Shown piece after piece: positions 3,307 through 14,563 of a DNA stretch of 64,000 bases. How positions within the stretch are numbered: position 1 is the first letter of the stretch; the number at the start of each line of letters is the position of its first letter. Source of the DNA: Bradyrhizobium sp. SZCCHNS1050. Its GTDB lineage: Bacteria > Pseudomonadota > Alphaproteobacteria > Rhizobiales > Xanthobacteraceae. A model generated the notes under the pieces. The model was given only the letters and a program-made list of their open reading frames with translations. It did no database searches and was not told the origin of the DNA. The DNA lies in the NCBI RefSeq assembly GCF_032484785.1, contig NZ_JAUETR010000001.1, positions 2,979,501-3,043,500 on the forward strand. Direction: 5' to 3'. A program made the translations under genes and the position numbers.

Positions 3307-5682
3307 ATGGTTTACGCTCGCATTTTTACGCTGCAGATATTCCTGCAAACTCTGTTTGTGGTCACAGGTGAAGTAAAAAGTTCCTATGCTTATGTAATCG
3401 ATGGCATGACGCTGGGTGAGAAACTCCCGGCCAGTTCTTACGCAAAGAGGTTCAGTGAGTGCAGCGACAGCCGCGATTTTGACGGATATCAGTGGTGCAA
3501 GCGAATTCAGCCGAGGCCGACTAGCTTAGGTCGCGGTCAAGCTACTACACAGATTCTTCGGTCGAAAGATGGAACACTCACCTATCTTATGACGACCGTA
3601 GCGCCCGTCTCGCTTAGCAAGTCGATAGTGCAGGCGGAGATTGACGAGCTCTCGCGAGAAAACAAAGAACAACCAATAAAGCTTGACTGGTATCAGACTC
3701 GAGATGGCATCACTGCCGTAATCGGTGTATGGGGCAAGCTTGAACTCGCAAGGATCCACAAAGACGATATTGGTCGCACGGATGCATTGATTGATCCCTT
3801 GGAAGATCCCGATAAATCAACAGATCAGGGCCTTCCCATATTTAGAGTAGCGGGAGAAGCCGGCTATGTCTATTGCGCAAGCTTCGATGCAAGTGGACGG
3901 GGGCACAGGCACTACGTTGCAGCCAATATGGCTCAGGCGGCGATCACGACCTTCGTTCCCACGCTCGAGGAAGCCGTTCGCGATGACCAGACTCGTTCGG
4001 CAGATGACTTCTCGCTCTGGATTAAAGTCGCTCAGGACAGCAGGCGTATCGCCGTTGCCGCCTCTCCTGCGGTTGCAAATCGAGAATTGGATAAGATCTT
4101 CCAGAGATACCGGCAAAAAAAGCTTCAATCGCGTGTGTGGGCGCTACTTCCTTTGGGTGTTTCTGAAACGCTCGGTCAGAAGATACATTGGACGGAAGTA
4201 AACTATGGTCCTAATACCCTGTATCCGGAAATACGAGAACGGATATTAGAGTTCTTGGCTGCAAATCCCAAAGGACGATTTTCAGAGTTTCTATATTACA
4301 CGATAGGTGAGTTCGAAAAAGGACTGGCGGTTAACCCCTCGTCGGTCATCAAGACGGAGCTCCGGTATGCTATGGGCTATGCTGCTCTTAGGCCGTTACT
4401 CGAAGGCGTCGTAAAACGTCTAAACGATCCCGAAATCCATCTTGCCGACGGCGATTCCATAGAGTCAGTAATCTCGCTCCTGAATCATGAAGCACGATAT
4501 AGAAGTACGCGACTAAGTGCTGTCGATCCCGAGTTTGTAAGCAGGGCGGCAGTCGCCAAGCCGCTGTTCGAGCTGGTGCTAAATGACGAATCGTCTAGAT
4601 TGGCCGATGATGCGGCCTACATGATAGGCTGGCTTGCGTTTCATCAGAATAAGATGCAAGAAGCGCTCGGTTACGCTGCGCGGGCAATGAACGTTGGAAA
4701 TGGCGATTATAGTTCTGCTGCCACACGGCTAGTGCTTCGAATATTTGAGAGATACACGCCTCAGCAGCAGGTTGCAGCACTTGAAGAGATTCCTGCGTTG
4801 TCGCAGCAGCCCGCGATATGGTACAAGGTGGCTCGAGATGCTTACCGGCGTTTCGATTATACGTACGTGATCGATGTAGCTGAGAGAGCGTTGCGCTACT
4901 TGCAAGCGCCGTCGGACCAGCTACCTGCGACTACGGACCCAATTCTCATTGCGCAAGCACTGAAAAAGATTAAGCACAAGTATGCTGACGATCCCAATTT
5001 TGTGGAAATTCCATACGTGTTGCAGGCGTCTCGGGAGATCGTCGAACTTAGCACCTCTATTAAATCAATTGCTGACAGTCGCCCTGATGCGGCCAATAAA
5101 ATTGTGAGAATGGCTGTGATCAAGTACTCACGGCTCACAGACGCCACCGACGACGTAGCCAGCAGAAAGCGCATGGCGCCGCTGGCGCACCGCGACCTAC
5201 GACAGGCCCTGCACCTTATAGACATTTCTCTCGCGCAGTTGCCAAAGAAGACGCAACTCGATTCACTACGCGAATGGCTACTTTATAGAAAGGTCAGAAT
5301 CCTGGTTTCTTTTGATCCTCGCAAGGTTCCAACCTCAGTCGTGGATCTTTCAAACGAATTCCCGGGTTCAGGCCTGTTAGACGACGCCATGGCGGAGCAG
5401 TTGTACTCGGAGGGAGTAAGGCTAAAAAATGTAGAGGCCGCCGAGCGCACTTTTCAAGCGCTCGTCGATAAGTTTCCCCGAGCCAACGCTATCGACAACG
5501 CGTACACCTGGATGGCGATCATTTATCACTGCGCGAACAGGGCTCCGGAAGAGCATAGAATGAATTTTGAAATAATTCGACGCTTTCCAACAACGCGCCA
5601 CGCGTTGTATGCTGCTAAACGGGAGGCCGTGGGTGGTTCGGTCAGCTGCAGCGTTTGGAGCGACGACGATGAAAATCTCTGA
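3307..5682 (+). CDS. Exported or membrane-anchored helical-repeat (TPR-like) protein of the cargo block
   Basis: A 791-residue protein of unknown function. Residues 6-28 are hydrophobic (RIFTLQIFLQTLFVVTG), consistent with a signal peptide or anchor. Residues 30-250 form a mixed segment with Cys residues, and the rest is largely helical. Near the C-terminus the pattern AERTFQALVDKFPRANAID, followed by an AYTWMAIIYH helix, resembles TPR units of the BamD/YbgF type. Codon use and base composition are AT-rich compared with the chromosome, like the three genes on the other strand. It ends 2 bases from the stop of the trypsin-STAND gene, so the two are tightly convergent. A strong GGAGAGGGAG site supports the start. 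Its role is unknown; proximity suggests it belongs to the same acquired module. Confidence 0.6.
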   Translation: MVYARIFTLQIFLQTLFVVTGEVKSSYAYVIDGMTLGEKLPASSYAKRFSECSDSRDFDGYQWCKRIQPRPTSLGRGQATTQILRSKDGTLTYLMTTVAPVSLSKSIVQAEIDELSRENKEQPIKLDWYQTRDGITAVIGVWGKLELARIHKDDIGRTDALIDPLEDPDKSTDQGLPIFRVAGEAGYVYCASFDASGRGHRHYVAANMAQAAITTFVPTLEEAVRDDQTRSADDFSLWIKVAQDSRRIAVAASPAVANRELDKIFQRYRQKKLQSRVWALLPLGVSETLGQKIHWTEVNYGPNTLYPEIRERILEFLAANPKGRFSEFLYYTIGEFEKGLAVNPSSVIKTELRYAMGYAALRPLLEGVVKRLNDPEIHLADGDSIESVISLLNHEARYRSTRLSAVDPEFVSRAAVAKPLFELVLNDESSRLADDAAYMIGWLAFHQNKMQEALGYAARAMNVGNGDYSSAATRLVLRIFERYTPQQQVAALEEIPALSQQPAIWYKVARDAYRRFDYTYVIDVAERALRYLQAPSDQLPATTDPILIAQALKKIKHKYADDPNFVEIPYVLQASREIVELSTSIKSIADSRPDAANKIVRMAVIKYSRLTDATDDVASRKRMAPLAHRDLRQALHLIDISLAQLPKKTQLDSLREWLLYRKVRILVSFDPRKVPTSVVDLSNEFPGSGLLDDAMAEQLYSEGVRLKNVEAAERTFQALVDKFPRANAIDNAYTWMAIIYHCANRAPEEHRMNFEIIRRFPTTRHALYAAKREAVGGSVSCSVWSDDDENL

Positions 5683-5684
5683 AC

Positions 5685-8582
5685 TCATCTTGAGTCGCTT
5701 GGTCTAATCGACCGTCCAACTCGTATCCCAATGGTGCTGCTGCCAGAGCTGGACCAGTCGCGGGCTGATGAGCGCAGTCCCCTTGGCTTGTCAAGGTATG
5801 AGCCGCCCCTTATAACGTGCCGTATACAAGCTGTTTCATTCCATGGCTCCTTCTTTGGCCCGTCTCCGTAATTGTCTCTGAAACAGTCCGCAACCCACTC
5901 GGACACGTTCCCGTGCATGTCGAATAACCCAAAATCGTTTGGGCGCTTTTTTCCAACCTCTTGTGGTTCCGTGAGTGCGAGACCCCCACCGTACCATGCG
6001 TATAGATCGAGCTCCTTGTCGTCGTTGCCAAAGGAAAAGTAGGTCGATTTTCCGCCTCTGGCTGCGTACTCCCACTCGGCCTCGCTTAACAGCCGATAGT
6101 CCTCGGCAGTCACCTGCTTCAGCCAAGATGCATAGTCACGTGCATCGGCCCAGCTGACGTTCGTAATCGGCGTATTTCCGTTAGTTGCTGGATCCGCTCT
6201 CTGCGAACAAAATGAAAACCTAACACACTGGTCCCATTCGTCGTTCGTTATCTCATGCTTGGACACGGCAATTGGCGTCTCAAACTCTAACATCTTGGCA
6301 GGCTGCTCCCTGGCCATCTCTTTTACCGCCGCGGTTGGCGAGCCGATGATGATGCGGCCGGTTGGTAAAACGACCATTTCGGGGCAGTGCGAGCATTCTT
6401 TGAAAGTACTCCCTACAGACAGCGAGCCAACCGCAGCAGTATGAACTTGAGTGAGTTGGTAGGCCATCAAATGAAGCCAACGGTGCTGCCACCAGATCAC
6501 CGCGGTAATGACTGCTATACAAAAAGCGACAGCAGAAGCCAAGCGGATGCGCCGGGATTGACGTCTAGAGGATTCGTCCGCTTCCTTGGATGCATTCAGA
6601 TAAGTGACCTCCTTGCCGGTCGGTGCCCGAGAGCCGACCAGGCCCTTTCGCACCAGTTCTAAGGAAGCAACGTCAAGAAGGCCGGCTGACGGATCCCTTG
6701 GGTCCCATTCCTTGGCGCGGTCGGATAGACGACGGATGGCTCTTTGACCAAGCCTTTCCGACCGGTCAAAGCGACGACGCACAGGAGAAGCAAGAGTGTC
6801 GTGAGCGAGCCTCGTGGACCTTTCGTCATCGGCGGTAGCTACCGTGTAGAGCAGAGCATTTCGCAGGAGCTCGTCGATCAATCCTTCGATATCGTGTTTT
6901 TGATCAGCAAGATGGGCATATAGCTTAAACGTCTCCGACCTGGACAGCTCAAGCGCTGTGCCATAGTCCGTGGTATGCCGGTAGAGGATATCCTCGACTA
7001 GTCCCGAGTTGACATGTTGCGGATAGATCTCCGCTAGAACGTTTATTTGTTCTTCAAGAAATTGATCGAGGTCCAATTTTCCACGCATGCGGACGTCATA
7101 GTGCGTCAGACTAAGGCACTGGTTGCCGGCTCGGTCCTTCTTGGCCTCTTGCCAGAGCCGCGTAAGAATGATGCTTAGCATGGGTGTTATGGGCGACTTG
7201 GGGTCGCTTAACAGATCCATGCCTATGCGCGCCGGAAGGTCGTCATCGACGCCAACATTATACCAACTACGGAGCCGCCGGGTGCTGACTATACCGCGGA
7301 CCACTTCCTCGATTTCATCCTGCGTTAATCTCTCAAGAAAGAACTCGGTAAAGACCACCTCCGCCTCGCGCAAGCGGGCACGAACTTCGGCCAGCCATTC
7401 GCTTCGAAATCCGATCAGAATTCTAGTATCGCGTCGCTCGTGTTTAAGTCGCTTGAGGCGGTGTGCCAACTGGCTAAGTTCGGCGTTACCGAACGACCGG
7501 CTAGTGAATGCTTCCTCTATCTGGTCGATTACTAGGACAACAGGCTTATTGCTGGTGTCGGTGGCGGCAAGAGCTTCTTTAAGGCGGTCTTCGAAAAGCT
7601 CCAGAAGAGTCTTGCCCGCCTCCCTGCGATGCGCCCGCGCTTCGTAGCTCCACCGTAGGCGAGGAAGCAACCCAGCCTCGAGTAATGACGATTTCCCGAC
7701 CCCTGAAGCTCCATACACCAGAATGACGCCGGGCCCCTCGTTGTCAACCACCTGCTCATATAGTTCCCGCAATCTACGGCTTCTACCAAAGAAGACTTCC
7801 GCATGCTCGGCGCCGTACCATCGAAGGTACCGGAACGGCTCTGCTGGCAGTGCTTGATGAGGAAGTCCCGGCAATCCGAGAATTGGATCTATTGCTGGCA
7901 GATATCGTGCGCAGCGTGTTTGGAGTACGTCGTTGTTGATGGGACAAGCGAACAGTACGCCAGCTGCAACGGAATCTCTATTGAGAGGTGAAACTAAGTT
8001 TGATCGGATAATGCCGACTGCGACGCCATCAACAAGGCATGGAGCGCCAGAGAAGCCGTCTAGTCGAGCGCTCTGACCGGCTGCGACATTGTCGCTGTAA
8101 AGCTGATAGACGTCGATCTCTGGACCTTGTGACAGTGCGCCTTGAACGCGGCCGTCAATGAAGAGAGCCCCACCAGCCATCTCGGCAATTGCGGGGAAGC
8201 CCCAACTTTCAAATGCTCGAGAGGCACTGTTGTCATTGGAGTTGGGAGAGAGTTCGCCGAGCGTCAGTGGAAAAATGCCTGCTGTCGGATTGTCAAGTTC
8301 CAACAAAGCCCAGTCGCCTATAACGTCAAAGCATCCCTCTGTTACTTTAGCTGCAAGATCGCACAATCCAGCGTCCGGAAATGTTACCCGCAAGGCCGAG
8401 TAGAAAAATGGAGCGTCACTCAGCGAAGACTGGATCCGATCTCCCACAACATGAAAGGCGGTCAAAAGGTGCCGCTCGGTTACTAAAAAACCCGTTCCGA
8501 GGACTGTATTGCGATCGTCCCTAATGCTCGTTATCCGTGCGATTGCTCGCTTTATCTCCGGTCTCATGGCACAAGTCCACAC
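5685..8582 (-). CDS. Trypsin-like protease / STAND NTPase / membrane helix / FGE-fold fusion
   Basis: A 965-residue multidomain protein. Residues 10-210 are a trypsin-fold protease with an apparent triad: His44 (TAFHVV), Asp90 (GDWALLEL) and Ser178 (GFSGAP, a variant of GDSGGP). Residues 250-600 are a STAND-type NTPase with Walker A GASGVGKSS (291-299) and Walker B VVLVIDQIEE (348-357). A single hydrophobic helix lies at about 680-698. Residues 725-960 form a formylglycine-generating-enzyme/SUMF1 fold (RLLSEAEWEYAARGG, FGLFDMHGNVSEW, HVIRGGSY). The paired Cys that FGE uses after GGSY are absent (GGSYLDKPRG), so this domain probably binds a ligand or protein rather than oxidising cysteine. STAND proteins are typically signal-triggered oligomerising switches. 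The start is a GTG at 8582 or the ATG five codons in, at 8567. It is the third gene of a caspase-hydrolase-STAND series. Confidence 0.85.
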   Translation of the reverse strand: MWTCAMRPEIKRAIARITSIRDDRNTVLGTGFLVTERHLLTAFHVVGDRIQSSLSDAPFFYSALRVTFPDAGLCDLAAKVTEGCFDVIGDWALLELDNPTAGIFPLTLGELSPNSNDNSASRAFESWGFPAIAEMAGGALFIDGRVQGALSQGPEIDVYQLYSDNVAAGQSARLDGFSGAPCLVDGVAVGIIRSNLVSPLNRDSVAAGVLFACPINNDVLQTRCARYLPAIDPILGLPGLPHQALPAEPFRYLRWYGAEHAEVFFGRSRRLRELYEQVVDNEGPGVILVYGASGVGKSSLLEAGLLPRLRWSYEARAHRREAGKTLLELFEDRLKEALAATDTSNKPVVLVIDQIEEAFTSRSFGNAELSQLAHRLKRLKHERRDTRILIGFRSEWLAEVRARLREAEVVFTEFFLERLTQDEIEEVVRGIVSTRRLRSWYNVGVDDDLPARIGMDLLSDPKSPITPMLSIILTRLWQEAKKDRAGNQCLSLTHYDVRMRGKLDLDQFLEEQINVLAEIYPQHVNSGLVEDILYRHTTDYGTALELSRSETFKLYAHLADQKHDIEGLIDELLRNALLYTVATADDERSTRLAHDTLASPVRRRFDRSERLGQRAIRRLSDRAKEWDPRDPSAGLLDVASLELVRKGLVGSRAPTGKEVTYLNASKEADESSRRQSRRIRLASAVAFCIAVITAVIWWQHRWLHLMAYQLTQVHTAAVGSLSVGSTFKECSHCPEMVVLPTGRIIIGSPTAAVKEMAREQPAKMLEFETPIAVSKHEITNDEWDQCVRFSFCSQRADPATNGNTPITNVSWADARDYASWLKQVTAEDYRLLSEAEWEYAARGGKSTYFSFGNDDKELDLYAWYGGGLALTEPQEVGKKRPNDFGLFDMHGNVSEWVADCFRDNYGDGPKKEPWNETACIRHVIRGGSYLDKPRGLRSSARDWSSSGSSTIGIRVGRSIRPSDSR

Positions 8583-8721
8583 TATGATTTAAGGTCCGTG
8601 CCTATCGGCAGGCTAAAGTATGCTTCCATTGCCTTCGTGCAGGCTAAGGAGGCGTTCTCGGATGTCTCACTTTGACGCTGGTTCAGAAGGGAACGCTAGT
8701 TGCGCGAGAACAGCCGCCGCC

Positions 8722-9588
8722 TCACACTCGGTGCAGCCCAAGCCAGATAGCTTTCGCTACATTTGCATCGTCAAGATATCCTGTGATCCCGTGCCTATTG
8801 TCGGTGTAGTTGTTGACGGTGCCAATATTGATAATCGATGGGTCTACGTCGAAATTGTTGGTGTCAAGCGGATACAAAGAAACGATGTCACGAGGATCGT
8901 AAGCGTTGTACCATCCATTGATGCCGAACGGGTTTGAGATAGGTGTCACTGATTTTCGGATCGCTCGAATCGCAAGGGGGGAGCCTACTGTCACGTAAGC
9001 CGGAAGCGGAGTGAACCGCGCCTTAAGAACGTTGTAAGCGACAACGCTCCCAAGGGAATGTCCCACGACAACCGACGTTTCTTGGGCAAGTAGATCCGCT
9101 ACGATACTATCGATCGCGTTTCGGACCGAATCGCGCTGCGTGTATAGAAAAACGTCGCGCATGAAGACCTCAATTGTGCCTTGCGATATCGTCGTTATGC
9201 GACGATCGATAAGACGAACGATGGCTTGCACCCATTTCCAGTTTTGCAGCCCTTTTTCCGCCGGCGCTGATCCTAGCTGGGCTTGCACCTCTGCATCGCT
9301 AATTCCGACGCGGAGCCGCATTTCATTAGCGATTTGCCGTCGAAACTCGGCGTACTCGTCGAATGCCGGACTCCCTTTGGGAGCAATAGCCGGGTCGGCC
9401 GGCAACTCAAACTGACGAACGAAGTGGTCGAGGCGATCCCCATAGAAAGGAAAATCGAACACGACGCCAGCGGGCAACGCCAATCCGGCCTTATTAAGTC
9501 CGTTGTTCAGCGCCTCAAGCCATTTCGCTTTCAGCGTTTCAGGATTGTTATGTTCTTGGCTGCGGCCGTGCACAAACAGAACTCTCAT
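8722..9588 (-). CDS. Alpha/beta-hydrolase (lipase/esterase-like) of the cargo operon
   Basis: A 288-residue alpha/beta-fold hydrolase. The start MRVLFVHGRSQ has the oxyanion-type HG turn, the nucleophile elbow is GHSLGS with Ser178, and Asp231 or Asp234 (NAYDPRDIVS) with His266 (DNRHGITGY) can complete the triad. There is no signal peptide, so it is probably cytoplasmic. Its ATG overlaps the stop of the upstream caspase gene by four bases (ATGA), which indicates co-translation. The next gene, the trypsin-STAND protein, starts 139 bases downstream on the same strand. The substrate cannot be read from sequence; in a defence setting a lipase effector would be one possibility, a peptide or ester hydrolase another. 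Confidence 0.75.
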   Translation of the reverse strand: MRVLFVHGRSQEHNNPETLKAKWLEALNNGLNKAGLALPAGVVFDFPFYGDRLDHFVRQFELPADPAIAPKGSPAFDEYAEFRRQIANEMRLRVGISDAEVQAQLGSAPAEKGLQNWKWVQAIVRLIDRRITTISQGTIEVFMRDVFLYTQRDSVRNAIDSIVADLLAQETSVVVGHSLGSVVAYNVLKARFTPLPAYVTVGSPLAIRAIRKSVTPISNPFGINGWYNAYDPRDIVSLYPLDTNNFDVDPSIINIGTVNNYTDNRHGITGYLDDANVAKAIWLGLHRV

Positions 9589-11354
9589 TGAAGTTCTCCA
9601 AGTCTGCCGTGCTGGATCGCGTCAATAATCGCCTGCGTTCGAGACGGAGTGAATGTAGTCCATAGCGCGGGTTCGAGTTCATCTTGGGCATGATCGAGAA
9701 CTTCAGGGAGTACGATGCGTCGCGCGCGCAAGAAGTTCCAGCCTTGCGTCAGCATTGGACAGAATGGCACGATCGCCGAGTTGCCAGGATCCTGTTCGGC
9801 AATTCGTCTCGCCAGCATCGCGACATCGAACAACTTGCTTCGCAAGTCGCCGGTCATACAGTCGAGAACAAAAGAGATATCGTCGCGGCGATCGGCTTCA
9901 GAATAGGCGTATGCCGCATACAAAGCTGCGGTTGGATCGAGCCCCTCCCCAACGCGAATTCGCTCGGCAAGTTCGCTAGCATGTGGTGTCTCGTTCAGGC
10001 GAAACACGCCAAACTGCGCAGCAGCAGCGACCACAGCCCTCAACCGATCCAATCTCTGCCGTCGATGGCTATAGTCGACCCAGCGAGGGCTATTTTGGGC
10101 CGGGATATAACTGACGTTTACAACTTTTCTGCCGTCCACGATTACGTGACCGACATATCCGTTCAATGCCGCCAATGCTGTGCCGTAGCCGTTTGTGAAC
10201 CTAATCACAACAGTGCAGCCGCCGGTCCGTGGTGTGCCAATTGAAATCGCGTTTGGACCCCTTACATCTCCCAACGAGCTGAGTTTGGGCCGCTCGCCGG
10301 TTGCAACTATGGCGTCAGAGATTGCTGCACCTATGATTACGAATCCGGATGTGGTCACGGAGGGATGGATGCTAGGTGAGAGCGCTCCGAGCGTTGCGAG
10401 GACATGCTTGAACGGCTTGGCCGCAGCAGTCGAGAATGGTCGTGCATCCTCGATCATTTCGGTCCCTCGCATCCCTAGCGCGTGACTTAGAGCAAGGGAC
10501 GCGACCTCCCGCACGTGAAGAACCTGCGTAGCGGGAGCGACATCGGCGATGTCGCCACTCCAATCCGCGGGTGCCGGCTTCGCTTTTGCAGTGCCGATAT
10601 AGACCGTGTCGTCAGAAAGAACTTCCGCATCCGGTAACTGGCTCAAACGGACATCTATGTTAGCCAGGAGCGATGGCACCTCACGCTCAAGGTACTTACC
10701 GAGGTTGCGGTTCGGGATTATGCTAATAGAACGGCCATCTTCTACGATTTCACGAATCATGTCGGCGTCTGGTCTCTCAAACGCCTGCAGGAAGCAGTGC
10801 GTGAACACGTTCGTTATAAGACCTTCTTTGCCGATCGGGGCTTCGAAAGCAGAAGCACCTTGCGCTGCTGCCATGAACTTATCGACCTTTGCGCGCTTCC
10901 GCTGGATATCTTCATTTGGGAAGACGATAGTGCCTCGCACCTTGAGAGCTCGAGGCGTGTCCGGAATCGTGCGACAGGCGTCTGAGATGATCACGACGCT
11001 TGGTATCCCACAATCTTTTGCGAACTCGGCCGTTTCCGCCCAACTGATCGCAGCGTTGGCGTCGGCTGGTGCGCCGCTAAGGAGCCAAATCTCAGAATCG
11101 TTTTTCCAGTATCCGTGGCCTGAGAAATAGATGACGAGTTGCTCGAAAGTGCCGGTTCCGATAAATCCCTGGATCGCTTCTGCGATTTGACGAGGCACTA
11201 CGGGTTCAGTCTGGTCGGTTATGATGACCACCTCGAATCCCTCAGTGGCCAACCACTTGCCAAAAGCTTCCGCGCCGCTTGCAGACGCCTTAAGGACCGG
11301 TAGAGCGCCTGTCTTATTGACCCCTATGACCACGGCTCCACGCTTCCTAGGCAT
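9585..11354 (-). CDS. Caspase-like (peptidase C14) protease with unknown C-terminal region
   Basis: A 589-residue protein. Residues 1-210 are a caspase/metacaspase fold: the start MPRKRGAVVIGVNKTGALPV matches the first strand, the catalytic His80 lies in VIYFSGHGYW and the catalytic Cys127 in VVIISDACRT. The region from about 260 to 589 has no family I recognise; it has helical segments near the end (ALYAAYAYSEADRR and LTQGWNFLRARRIV). There is no signal peptide. It is the first gene of a minus-strand series, overlapping the hydrolase gene by four bases. The caspase fold with His-Cys dyad is clear. A role in programmed cell death or anti-phage response is inferred from the family and the neighbours. 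Confidence 0.85.
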   Translation of the reverse strand: MPRKRGAVVIGVNKTGALPVLKASASGAEAFGKWLATEGFEVVIITDQTEPVVPRQIAEAIQGFIGTGTFEQLVIYFSGHGYWKNDSEIWLLSGAPADANAAISWAETAEFAKDCGIPSVVIISDACRTIPDTPRALKVRGTIVFPNEDIQRKRAKVDKFMAAAQGASAFEAPIGKEGLITNVFTHCFLQAFERPDADMIREIVEDGRSISIIPNRNLGKYLEREVPSLLANIDVRLSQLPDAEVLSDDTVYIGTAKAKPAPADWSGDIADVAPATQVLHVREVASLALSHALGMRGTEMIEDARPFSTAAAKPFKHVLATLGALSPSIHPSVTTSGFVIIGAAISDAIVATGERPKLSSLGDVRGPNAISIGTPRTGGCTVVIRFTNGYGTALAALNGYVGHVIVDGRKVVNVSYIPAQNSPRWVDYSHRRQRLDRLRAVVAAAAQFGVFRLNETPHASELAERIRVGEGLDPTAALYAAYAYSEADRRDDISFVLDCMTGDLRSKLFDVAMLARRIAEQDPGNSAIVPFCPMLTQGWNFLRARRIVLPEVLDHAQDELEPALWTTFTPSRTQAIIDAIQHGRLGELQ

Positions 11355-13144: not shown

Positions 13145-14563
13145 ATCGTGTCCCCAAGCGTGGTGTAGCTGGCGGCCCACCGCGTTCGCCGGCTGGAGCC
13201 GGGCCTGTCAGCTGGCGATAGCCGTGAGGCTGACGTTCGGATCATCGCTCAATGGCGCGATGGTTTCCAGCGTCATGTAGCGGGCGCGTTGGACCGCCCA
13301 TTCATCGTTCTGTTCGAGCAGGACAGCTCCGATGAGGCGGACGATAGCGTCCTCATTGGGGAAGATGCCGACCACCTCGGTGCGCCGTTTGATCTCGCCG
13401 TTGAGGCGTTCGATCGGATTGGTGGAGTGCAACTTGGTCCGATGCTGCGGCGGGAACGTCATGTAGGCAAGCACGTCGGTCTCGGCCTCGTCGAGGAAGC
13501 CGGCAAGCTTGGGCAGCTTGGGACGGAGCTGATCGGCGACCTTGCGCCATTGGGTGCGAGCGGCCTCGGCATCGTCCTGGGCAAAGGCCGTGGCGATGAA
13601 GGCGGAGACCACGCGCCGTCCGCTCTTGCCGGCATGAGCCAGCACGTTCCGCATGAAGTGGACGCGGCAGCGTTGCCAGCTGGCGTTGAGCACCTTGGTC
13701 ACGGTGGCCTTGATGCCCTCGTGGGCGTCGGACACCACCAGCTTGACGCCGCGCAAGCCGCGGCGGGCCAGCTTGCGCAGGAAGGCGGTCCAGAACGTCT
13801 CGGCCTCGGACGGCCCGATGTCCATGCCGAGAACCTCGCGCCGGCCGTCGCTGTTGACGCCGACTGCAACGATCACCGCGACGGAGACGATGCGCCCCTG
13901 CTGGCGCACCTTCACATAGGTGGCGTCGATCCAAAGATAGGGCCAGTCACCCTCGATTGGACGGCCGAGGAAGGCCTTCACTTTGTCGTCGATCTCGCCG
14001 CACAACCGACTGACCTGGCTCTTGGAGATGCCGGTCATGCCCATCGCCTGCACCAGATCGTCGACCGAACGGGTCGAGACGCCCTGAACGTAAGCCTCCT
14101 GAACCACGGCGGTGAGCGCCTTCTCGGCCATGCGCCGCGGCTCCAGGAAGCCGGGGAAATAGGAGCCCTTGCGCAGCTTTGGGATGCGCAGCTCCACCGC
14201 ACCGGCGCGGGTCTCCCAGATCCGGTCGCGGTAGCCATTGCGCTGGGCCAGACGTTCGGGGCTCTTCTCGCCATAGGCAGCCCCGGTCTGGCTCTCGACC
14301 TCCAGCTCCATCAGGCGCTGGGCCGCAAAGCCGATCATCTCGCGCAGCAGATCGGCGTCTGGGGTCTTCTCTACCAGCGTGCGCAGGTTCATCATGTCTT
14401 CGGTCATCGGTGGTTCCTCGGTTGCGTTGGCGTGTCGCAACCCGATCCTACCGGAGAACTGCCGGTGACCACCGCAAAGCCGCCCGCCCGCTACGGCGCT
14501 ATTTGGGAGCGCGCGTCCGGGCGGCTTTGCTCCACCGAGCTACACCACCTCCGGGGACACGAC
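13145..14563 (-). mobile_element. IS256-family insertion sequence, apparently complete
   Basis: A 1.4-kb element with one transposase gene. Imperfect terminal inverted repeats are visible: TCGTGTCCCC followed by a GTGGTGTAGCT block at the left (13146-13170), and the reverse complement at the right (about 14540-14562). The 10-base sequence CTGAAGGTCG occurs directly outside both ends (13135-13144 and 14564-14573), consistent with the 8-9 base target duplications of this family. Intact ends, duplications and reading frame all suggest a recent insertion beside the older IS66 debris. Confidence 0.8.
13208..14407 (-). CDS. IS256-family transposase (mutator type)
   Basis: A 399-residue transposase from the ATG at 14407 (an upstream in-frame ATG at 14440 exists, but GAGGA lies eight bases before 14407). 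The DDE residues can be placed in [11 protein letters not shown] (Asp), [11 protein letters not shown] (Asp) and [13 protein letters not shown] (Glu). The zinc-type CRVHFMRN motif typical of the family is present. Length is normal for IS256. No frameshift is seen, so the protein is probably active and could mobilise the surrounding region. Confidence 0.9.

What the first reader, a model, noticed from the sequence alone, without database searches (positions are those of the whole stretch)
5685..11354. Caspase / alpha-beta hydrolase / trypsin-STAND-FGE operon: candidate new defence or cell-death system
Three genes on one strand encode a caspase-fold protease (His80/Cys127), a Ser hydrolase (GHSLGS) overlapping it by four bases, and a 965-residue trypsin-STAND-TM-FGE fusion. 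Caspases, associated trypsins and STAND switches are established parts of bacterial abortive-infection systems, but I know of no described system with this gene set. One model: the FGE-fold part or STAND domain senses a trigger, the trypsin domain activates the caspase, and the hydrolase is the effector. It lies in an AT-rich cargo block of a mobile island.
Basis: partly seen in the sequence, partly recalled or inferred. Interest (0 to 1): 0.88.

Follow-up and report, generated by a model that had tools for sequence, protein, structure and literature searches.

The report
Caspase that likely cleaves partner hydrolase
A bacterial caspase and the enzyme encoded right behind it form a self-contained gene pair found in many kinds of bacteria, and matched sequence changes suggest that the caspase cuts its partner at one precise spot, much as caspases switch on other enzymes in our own cells.

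Summary
The three genes are real and where stated, but only two form a unit. Fetched by the hydrolase alone, 75 of 80 genome loci carry the same caspase at the hydrolase's 5' side, in eight phyla as labelled and on plasmids. The trypsin-STAND-FGE gene recurs only in a near-identical strain.

The caspase probably acts on the hydrolase. The hydrolase has a conserved K/R71-G72 in an otherwise variable cap loop, like the sites cut by human MALT1 (basic P1, Gly P1'). Caspase residue 171, aligned with MALT1 S1 residue Glu500, co-varies with it: E171 pairs with K/R71 in 64 of 65, non-E with non-basic in 6 of 6 (best of 3,675 column pairs). Fourteen further pairs agree. Lys71 occurs only with Ser/Thr at caspase residue 78.

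In 17 of 83 loci both proteins carry Tat-like signals, in 66 neither, so they share a compartment.

Best reading: a stand-alone caspase-to-hydrolase zymogen cascade, a new variant of a known pairing. Cleavage, trigger, substrate and phage defence are inferred; strict phylogenetic tests lacked power and no defence-gene enrichment was shown nearby.

The parts
9585..11354 (-). Caspase (589 aa): paracaspase-like protease domain (about residues 1-255; His80, Asp125, Cys127, Glu171), low-confidence linker (about 260-330), conserved C-terminal module (beta-rich about 335-418, then helices about 424-581)
8722..9588 (-). Alpha/beta hydrolase (288 aa): Ser178-Asp234-His266, helical insertion about 50-166 that probably forms a cap
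9373..9378 (-). Predicted caspase cleavage site in the hydrolase: Lys71-Gly72 (codons 71-72), in an otherwise variable loop
   Evidence: coordinates computed from the gene start at 9588
10842..10844 (-). Caspase residue Glu171, aligned with MALT1 Glu500 (S1 pocket); co-varies with hydrolase residue 71
   Evidence: coordinates computed from the gene start at 11354
11121..11123 (-). Caspase residue Ser78, two before catalytic His80; Ser/Thr in all pairs seen whose hydrolase residue 71 is Lys
   Evidence: coordinates computed from the gene start at 11354
5685..8582 (-). Trypsin-nSTAND1-TM-FGE protein (965 aa), 139 nt downstream; not conserved with the pair, judged a neighbour and not a component

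Best explanation
The caspase and hydrolase genes encode a stand-alone two-protein zymogen cascade with no NTPase. The caspase senses a trigger through its conserved C-terminal module (inferred) and becomes active. It cuts the hydrolase after K/R71, before Gly72, in the loop between the first two helices of the hydrolase's cap (supported by co-variation with the caspase S1 pocket; no cleavage has been measured). Nicking the cap opens the hydrolase active site (inferred), which then attacks a lipid or acyl ester, probably of the cell's own membrane, stopping or killing the cell (inferred from the fold and from analogy). In a subset of loci both proteins are predicted Tat substrates and would do this in the periplasm. 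The trypsin-STAND-FGE gene is a neighbour in the island and not a part.
For: Pairing: a hydrolase-only scan of genome contigs kept the best 80 loci; 75 of 80 have the family caspase at the 5' side (74 as a separate frame within 300 nt, among them two cut by a contig end and one broken pair, plus one natural fusion, L109); 2 of 80 start at a contig end (L078, L090) and 3 of 80 lack it (L104, L112, L113). Among neighbour ORFs of 120 aa or more, no other family recurs in more than 5 of the 87 loci. Catalytic residues are invariant in both. Cleavage site: of 74 family hydrolases, K/R71 in 67, Gly72 in 72, aliphatic residue 68 in 67, in a stretch whose other positions are highly variable; MALT1 is almost entirely limited to Gly at P1' and its natural sites are cut between Arg and Gly (PMC6207715, passages). 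Co-variation over 71 pairs: E171 with K/R71 64 of 65, non-E171 with non-basic 71 6 of 6, rank 1 of 3,675 near-conserved column pairs; residue 171 aligns with MALT1 Glu500 and 125 with Asp462, both S1 residues (PMC4357240, passages). The one exception, L062 (Met71, E171), has Ile at residue 78. Residue 78 x 71 ranks 7 of 169,632 pairs; Lys71 with Ser/Thr78 18 of 18, Ala78 with Lys71 0 of 37. Predictions written down held in 14 of 14 further pairs: K/R with E171 10 of 10, non-basic with non-E 4 of 4, Lys with Ser78 6 of 6; three of the 14 had been seen before in whole or part. Shared compartment: both proteins Tat-like in 17 of 83 loci, neither in the other 66 (three rows settled by eye).
Against: No experiment. 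The strict phylogenetic test is underpowered: 3 starred independent pairs for basic71/E171 (2 same way, 0 opposite) and 5-6 for Lys/Ser (1.6-3.1 same, 0.0 opposite), none significant. Leaving out the long-branch clade (L039, L125-127), the 171 x 71 table is 2, 0, 1, 64 and drops to rank 10 of 3,478. By full-alphabet mutual information 171 x 71 ranks only 533 of 169,632, and 7,883 without that clade. Two close relatives without this caspase (L112 with a CHAT partner, L113 with none) keep R-G, so the motif may have another role or have outlived a partner change. The MALT1 profile match is weak on its own (E = 0.016). Some of the 14 further pairs are near relatives of the first set. Nothing shows that cleavage activates and does not inactivate. 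The Tat trait may be one event. PADLOC on neighbours showed no enrichment.
Confidence: 0.66

Rival explanations
1. The hydrolase loop docks into the caspase S1 pocket as a pseudosubstrate inhibitor or is an off-switch: the two form a complex, and cleavage (if any) inactivates the hydrolase or releases the caspase, which would be the true effector.
For: Co-variation points to contact of residue 71 with the S1 region but not to its outcome. The hydrolase gene follows the caspase gene closely, with a 4-nt overlap in 42 of 87 rows, as inhibitor genes often do.
Against: Gly72 is conserved like a P1' residue of a cut site (72 of 74) and MALT1 is almost limited to Gly there. The hydrolase keeps Ser178, Asp234 and His266 in 78 of 78, which a pure inhibitor would not need.
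Confidence: 0.17
2. The three-gene operon: STAND/FGE senses, its trypsin activates the caspase, the hydrolase is the effector.
For: Same strand, 139 nt gap with no terminator-like site found in it; present together in the window and in Bradyrhizobium sp. SSBR45G.
Against: Those two are near-identical over this block (99.9%), so they count once. In the other loci searched the STAND gene was not found with the pair, apart from weak hits to an opposite-strand gene in L047; no full-length relative in plasmids (0 of 36 records cover 80%); of 198 genomes of the family 28, the window's own included, match at E 1e-40, the others only over the FGE end or STAND plus FGE.
Confidence: 0.06
3. The pair is an effector module of a larger VMAP-like ternary or STAND system, with sensor and NTPase encoded elsewhere in the genome.
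For: More distant hydrolases sit beside VMAP proteins with an AAA gene next door (L166, L167) or beside STAND-WD40 proteins (L124, L168).
Against: 0 of 71 family caspases match a VMAP Pfam model; no recurring NTPase gene near the pair; the C-terminal module of the caspase is conserved over eight phyla.
Confidence: 0.11

Closest known systems
Caspase-VMAP plus alpha/beta-hydrolase of the vWA-MoxR-VMAP ternary conflict systems (Kaur et al. 2020, PMC7159879; passages read)
   Same: Caspase domain accompanied, in their words always, by a neighbouring alpha/beta-hydrolase gene; distant relatives of this hydrolase family sit in such loci (L166, L167: VMAP-M2, in L167 also VMAP-C; AAA gene next door).
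   Different: Here the caspase matches no VMAP model but has its own C-terminal module; no vWA or MoxR partner seen; two genes only; predicted cleavage site and Tat-like signals, neither mentioned in the passages read.
Canu caspase-nuclease loci, KaeCanABC (Science 2025, PMC12799240; abstract and passages read)
   Same: MALT1-like caspase paired with a hydrolytic enzyme that is a zymogen there and presumed one here, with a conserved Gly at the proposed cleavage site.
   Different: The effector there is an MBL-fold nuclease and there are three genes; here it is an alpha/beta hydrolase and two genes. That paper suggests further protease-activated enzyme classes; this would be one.
MALT1 paracaspase (PMC4357240 and PMC6207715; passages read)
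   Different: The family has Gly27 where metacaspases have Asp; that this column is MALT1 Asp365 is recalled. The C-terminal module was not compared on its own; 18 of 71 members are predicted to be cut after Lys.
nSTAND1-FGE (CLec) sensor proteins, some with N-terminal peptidases and DGR-diversified (PMC10907252; passages read)
   Same: Domain order of the third gene: peptidase, nSTAND1, C-terminal FGE.
   Different: No reverse transcriptase near it: the two hits in the genome lie elsewhere.

Membership tests
VMAP ternary system (Kaur 2020) | VMAP-M or VMAP-C domain on the peptidase protein | tested here: not met
   Pfam on 71 family caspases: no VMAP family matched at E 0.01, while 66 of 71 matched Peptidase_C14; the same library finds VMAP in L166 and L167
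VMAP ternary system (Kaur 2020) | MoxR AAA and vWA genes beside it | tested here: not met
   Window ORFs scanned around the pair show transposase, amidase and TPR, no MoxR or vWA (14 proteins, not every ORF); no recurrent neighbour in relatives
VMAP ternary system (Kaur 2020) | caspase with neighbouring alpha/beta-hydrolase gene | tested here: met
   75 of 80 genome loci
Canu (caspase-nuclease) | MBL-fold nuclease as partner | tested here: not met
   Partner is an alpha/beta hydrolase
Canu (caspase-nuclease) | MALT1-like caspase domain | tested here: met
Canu (caspase-nuclease) | Ig-like domain after the caspase domain | tested here: inconclusive
   A beta-rich domain is predicted at 335-418 but was not searched by fold on its own
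MALT1-type paracaspase specificity | acidic S1 residues at the Asp462 and Glu500 positions | tested here: met
   Asp125 in 71 of 71, Glu171 in 65 of 71; equivalence
MALT1-type paracaspase specificity | cleaves after a basic residue before Gly | not testable with these tools
   Predicted only
EACC1-associated caspase (NCBIfam NF047832) | score above the curated cut-off | tested here: not met
   34.2 bits against 140
Known anti-phage defence system (PADLOC-DB 2.0.0) | hydrolase and caspase match models of one system | tested here: not met
   Caspase matches only the generic 'caspase' model at 27 bits; hydrolase matches none at E 1
DGR-diversified FGE sensor (third gene) | reverse transcriptase nearby | tested here: not met
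   RVT_1 hits only at C2:409666 and C1:1559576; the window is C1:2979501-3043500

The most novel reading that the evidence does not exclude
A stand-alone bacterial caspase cascade with no NTPase, spread over some eight phyla, in which a paracaspase-like protease switches on a membrane-attacking hydrolase by nicking its cap at a basic residue-Gly site; protease pocket and substrate site have co-evolved through switches between Arg, Lys and Met/Gln, and one lineage has moved the whole cascade between cytoplasm and periplasm by changing the Tat signals of both proteins together. That would be a caspase death switch working outside the cytoplasm.
Probability: 0.45. Interest if true: 0.87.

Novelty: new variant of a known kind. 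Interest (0 to 1): 0.74.

Why it matters
Substrates of bacterial caspases are, to my knowledge, mostly unknown. Here sequence alone names a partner, a cleavage site and the pocket residues that read it, with natural variants that predict the cleavage preference of each pair, so the claim can be tested with two purified proteins. It also fits a suggestion made with Canu, that other proteolytically activated enzymes take part in immunity (PMC12799240), with a hydrolase in place of a nuclease. A Tat-exported caspase and substrate would be a striking change of compartment for such a cascade.

Tried and rejected
Three-gene system: rejected, see rival 2. Defence-island test: 100 of 157 neighbour ORFs (up to two nearest of 150 aa or more on each side, 43 Pseudomonadota loci, random sample) against PADLOC at E 1e-10 matched 21 families: mad2 in 3 members and 20 further models in 1 each, 16 of these HamB models that probably hit one ORF. 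The control of 100 ORFs from 20 arbitrary places in 8 genomes matched 91 families, of which 25 are shown, so its member count cannot be read; it is not visibly lower. No enrichment can be claimed. Greedy ORF picking in GC-rich DNA includes false ORFs, which weakens both sets.

DGR around the FGE gene: no RT nearby. Autoprocessing site in the caspase linker: [KR]G occurs in 49 of 71 linkers but also in 37 of 71 N-terminal stretches of equal length, so it says little. The automatic Tat scan gave 15 both, 2 caspase only, 66 neither of 83, and 4 of 336 in control frames; reading by eye I moved L054 to 'both' (its hydrolase has an RR signal the scan passed over), L065 from neither to 'both', and L039 to neither (the match lies upstream of its start), giving 17 both, 66 neither. 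Several of the 17 are near copies (L034, L035, L040; L036, L044; L051, L055).
Full report
What is there. A 791-aa protein with weak TPR matches (3307-5682, plus strand) converges on them. The block is low in GC.

The unit is two genes. I searched with each gene. The caspase found relatives on 19 plasmid records at E 1e-5, 8 of them covered over 80% of the query, from Sinorhizobium, Ensifer, Bradyrhizobium and Hymenobacter. I opened eight of the 19 (seven of the full-length ones and one partial, L039); all eight have a hydrolase of this family at the caspase's 3' side, one of them truncated (L040). Of these 80, 75 have the family caspase at the hydrolase's 5' side: 74 as a separate frame within 300 nt and one as a natural fusion (L109, 940 aa). 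Among the 74, L060 and L064 are cut by the contig end but show the caspase C-terminus, and L107 is a broken pair. Two of 80 (L078, L090) begin at a contig end and three lack it (L104 has a different caspase downstream, L112 a CHAT gene, L113 nothing recognised). One of the 80, L041, is the near-identical strain. The 4-nt overlap occurs in 42 of 87 rows, all among the 68 rows without Tat signals, fusion or reversed order. The 80 were ranked by likeness to the window hydrolase, so this is the near family only. By the labels, several of them MAGs, it spans Pseudomonadota, Bacteroidota, Acidobacteriota, Actinomycetota, Gemmatimonadota, Planctomycetota, Verrucomicrobiota and Myxococcota. Among neighbour ORFs of 120 aa or more, no family recurs in more than 5 loci.

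The third gene. In the loci searched the STAND gene was found with the pair only in SSBR45G; otherwise there were weak hits to an opposite-strand gene in L047. In plasmids 0 of 36 matching records cover 80% of it. In 198 genomes of the family 28, the window's own included, match at E 1e-40; the others listed match the FGE end or STAND plus FGE. It resembles the nSTAND1-FGE sensors of PMC10907252, some of which have N-terminal peptidases (passages), without a nearby RT.

The proposed cleavage site. Within that insertion, between helices 50-60 and 74-94, lies a variable loop; its first part is the least confident block of the model (residues 61-70, mean pLDDT 73). In 74 family hydrolases residue 71 is K/R in 67, residue 72 Gly in 72, residue 68 aliphatic in 67, while the other positions from 58 to 80 have 2.4-3.8 bits of entropy, gaps counted as a letter (mean of the protein 1.9). 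This resembles what MALT1 cuts: Arg at P1, almost only Gly at P1', aliphatic P3, small or Pro P2 (PMC6207715, passages; an aliphatic P4 is recalled). More distant hydrolases beside other kinds of partner lack K/R-G (L121, L124, L165-L168).

Pocket and site co-vary. MALT1 reads P1 Arg through Asp365, Asp462 and Glu500, with Ala498 and Gly416 (PMC4357240, passages). A profile of the family aligns Asp125 with Asp462, Ala169 with Ala498 and Glu171 with Glu500 (numbering by my count from catalytic His415, which is recalled). In 71 pairs: E171 with K/R71 64, E171 with non-basic 1 (L062), non-E with K/R 0, non-E with non-basic 6 (Fisher 4.9e-8, best of 3,675 cross pairs of near-conserved columns). 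L062 instead has Ile at residue 78. Residue 78, two before the catalytic His, separates Lys from Arg: Lys71 is always with Ser or Thr (18 of 18) and never with Ala (0 of 37; 34 Arg, 3 Met), while Ser78 also occurs with Arg (11); this pair of columns ranks 7 of 169,632. Metacaspase-4 has Ser there and MALT1 Ala. A Ser/Ala switch tuning Lys against Arg is known from trypsin-like proteases (position 190, recalled).

Test on new pairs. I wrote the predictions down and then read 14 further pairs (L163, L164, L179-L181, L183, L186, L187, L190-L192, L195-L197). Three were not blind: both proteins of L195 and L196 (as L004 and L005) and the caspase of L197 (as L007) had been in the alignments. All 14 agree: K/R with E171 10 of 10, non-basic with non-E 4 of 4, Lys with Ser78 6 of 6. 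In L164 and L181 the profile misplaces the short loop; by eye residue 71 is Met and Gln, and non-basic either way; L180 is unclear in register but non-basic. L163 and L164 are near relatives of the first set, and L179 and L186 of each other.

Limits of the statistics. Related sequences are not independent. Without the long-branch clade the 171 x 71 table is 2, 0, 1, 64 and ranks 10 of 3,478. By full-alphabet mutual information 171 x 71 ranks 533 of 169,632, and 7,883 without that clade. Tree-based independent pairs go the predicted way or do not differ, none goes against, but there are too few for significance. The trees need 8-10 changes between Lys and Arg.

Shared compartment. In 17 of 83 loci with a complete N-terminus both proteins begin with a twin-arginine, hydrophobic signal; in 66 neither does (three rows settled by eye, see Tried and rejected). 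On the caspase tree the 16 such rows used need one change (support 69, under the 80 that counts as resolved); on the hydrolase tree they lie in one group of 17 that also holds L047, which has no signal. So the trait fits one clade and perhaps one event; gain and loss cannot be told apart. The window pair has no signal.

Wider family. More distant hydrolases sit beside VMAP proteins (L166, L167), whose N-termini show GHG and DTC motifs by eye, beside STAND-WD40 proteins (L124, L168) with GHG and DSC by eye (my caspase profile matched none of these), beside CHAT (L112, L121) or fused behind a trypsin (L165). Kaur et al. [quoted passage not shown] The pairing is therefore known; the stand-alone system, the cleavage site, the pocket co-variation and the exported form are what this work adds, as far as the listings show.

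Mechanism. Shown by sequence: the pair, intact active sites, the conserved site, its co-variation with the S1 pocket, the shared Tat-like signals. Inferred: cleavage, activation by it, lipid or acyl-ester substrate, self-harm, trigger sensing by the C-terminal module, role against phages or plasmids. The family is rare and patchy: five strong matches (E under 1e-80, window included) among 398 genomes of the phylum (15 of 398 at E 1e-15), 1 of 369, 6 of 233 and 6 of 299 (two of them without the family caspase). It also lies on plasmids, as accessory conflict systems do, but a test for known defence genes nearby showed no enrichment.

Noticed in passing
window 13145-14563: A stretch with a Mutator-family transposase (13208-14440) is missing at the same place in Bradyrhizobium sp. 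SSBR45G (L041), whose flanks match at 99.9% and 95.5%: probably a recent IS insertion.
   Followed up: partly
window 3307-5682 (+): 791-aa protein with a hydrophobic N-terminus and weak TPR and PorW/SprE-like matches converges on the STAND gene; among the loci searched found only in L041.
   Followed up: partly
L109 6081-8903: Natural fusion of the caspase and hydrolase in one 940-aa frame; the frame upstream (3733-6084) holds a similar-looking 'NPMLGIYGAHLL' helical stretch.
   Followed up: partly
L165 3921-5909: Streptomyces plasmid: trypsin domain fused in front of a hydrolase of the same family, with a stand-alone FGE-type gene nearby.
   Followed up: partly
L124 8855-13258 and L168 5858-10360: Hydrolase followed by a STAND-WD40 protein whose N-terminus looks caspase-like by eye; L124 has type I-E CRISPR genes about 1 kb further on.
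   Followed up: partly
L040, L107, L186: Decaying copies of the pair: truncated hydrolase on a Sinorhizobium medicae pSymA (L040), broken fragments in Ruegeria (L107), interrupted frames in L186.
   Followed up: no
L122 7989-8873: Acinetobacter baumannii hydrolase of this family with no annotated peptidase beside it, near cell-division and transport genes.
   Followed up: no
L006: Same-genus genome G122: a very long frame (1,870 aa) holding a related caspase domain with Ser in place of the catalytic Cys; no hydrolase found in the stretch held.
   Followed up: no
L038, L085, L088: These three pairs share three further minus-strand genes 0.1-6 kb upstream, one of them looking like a second caspase.
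   Followed up: no
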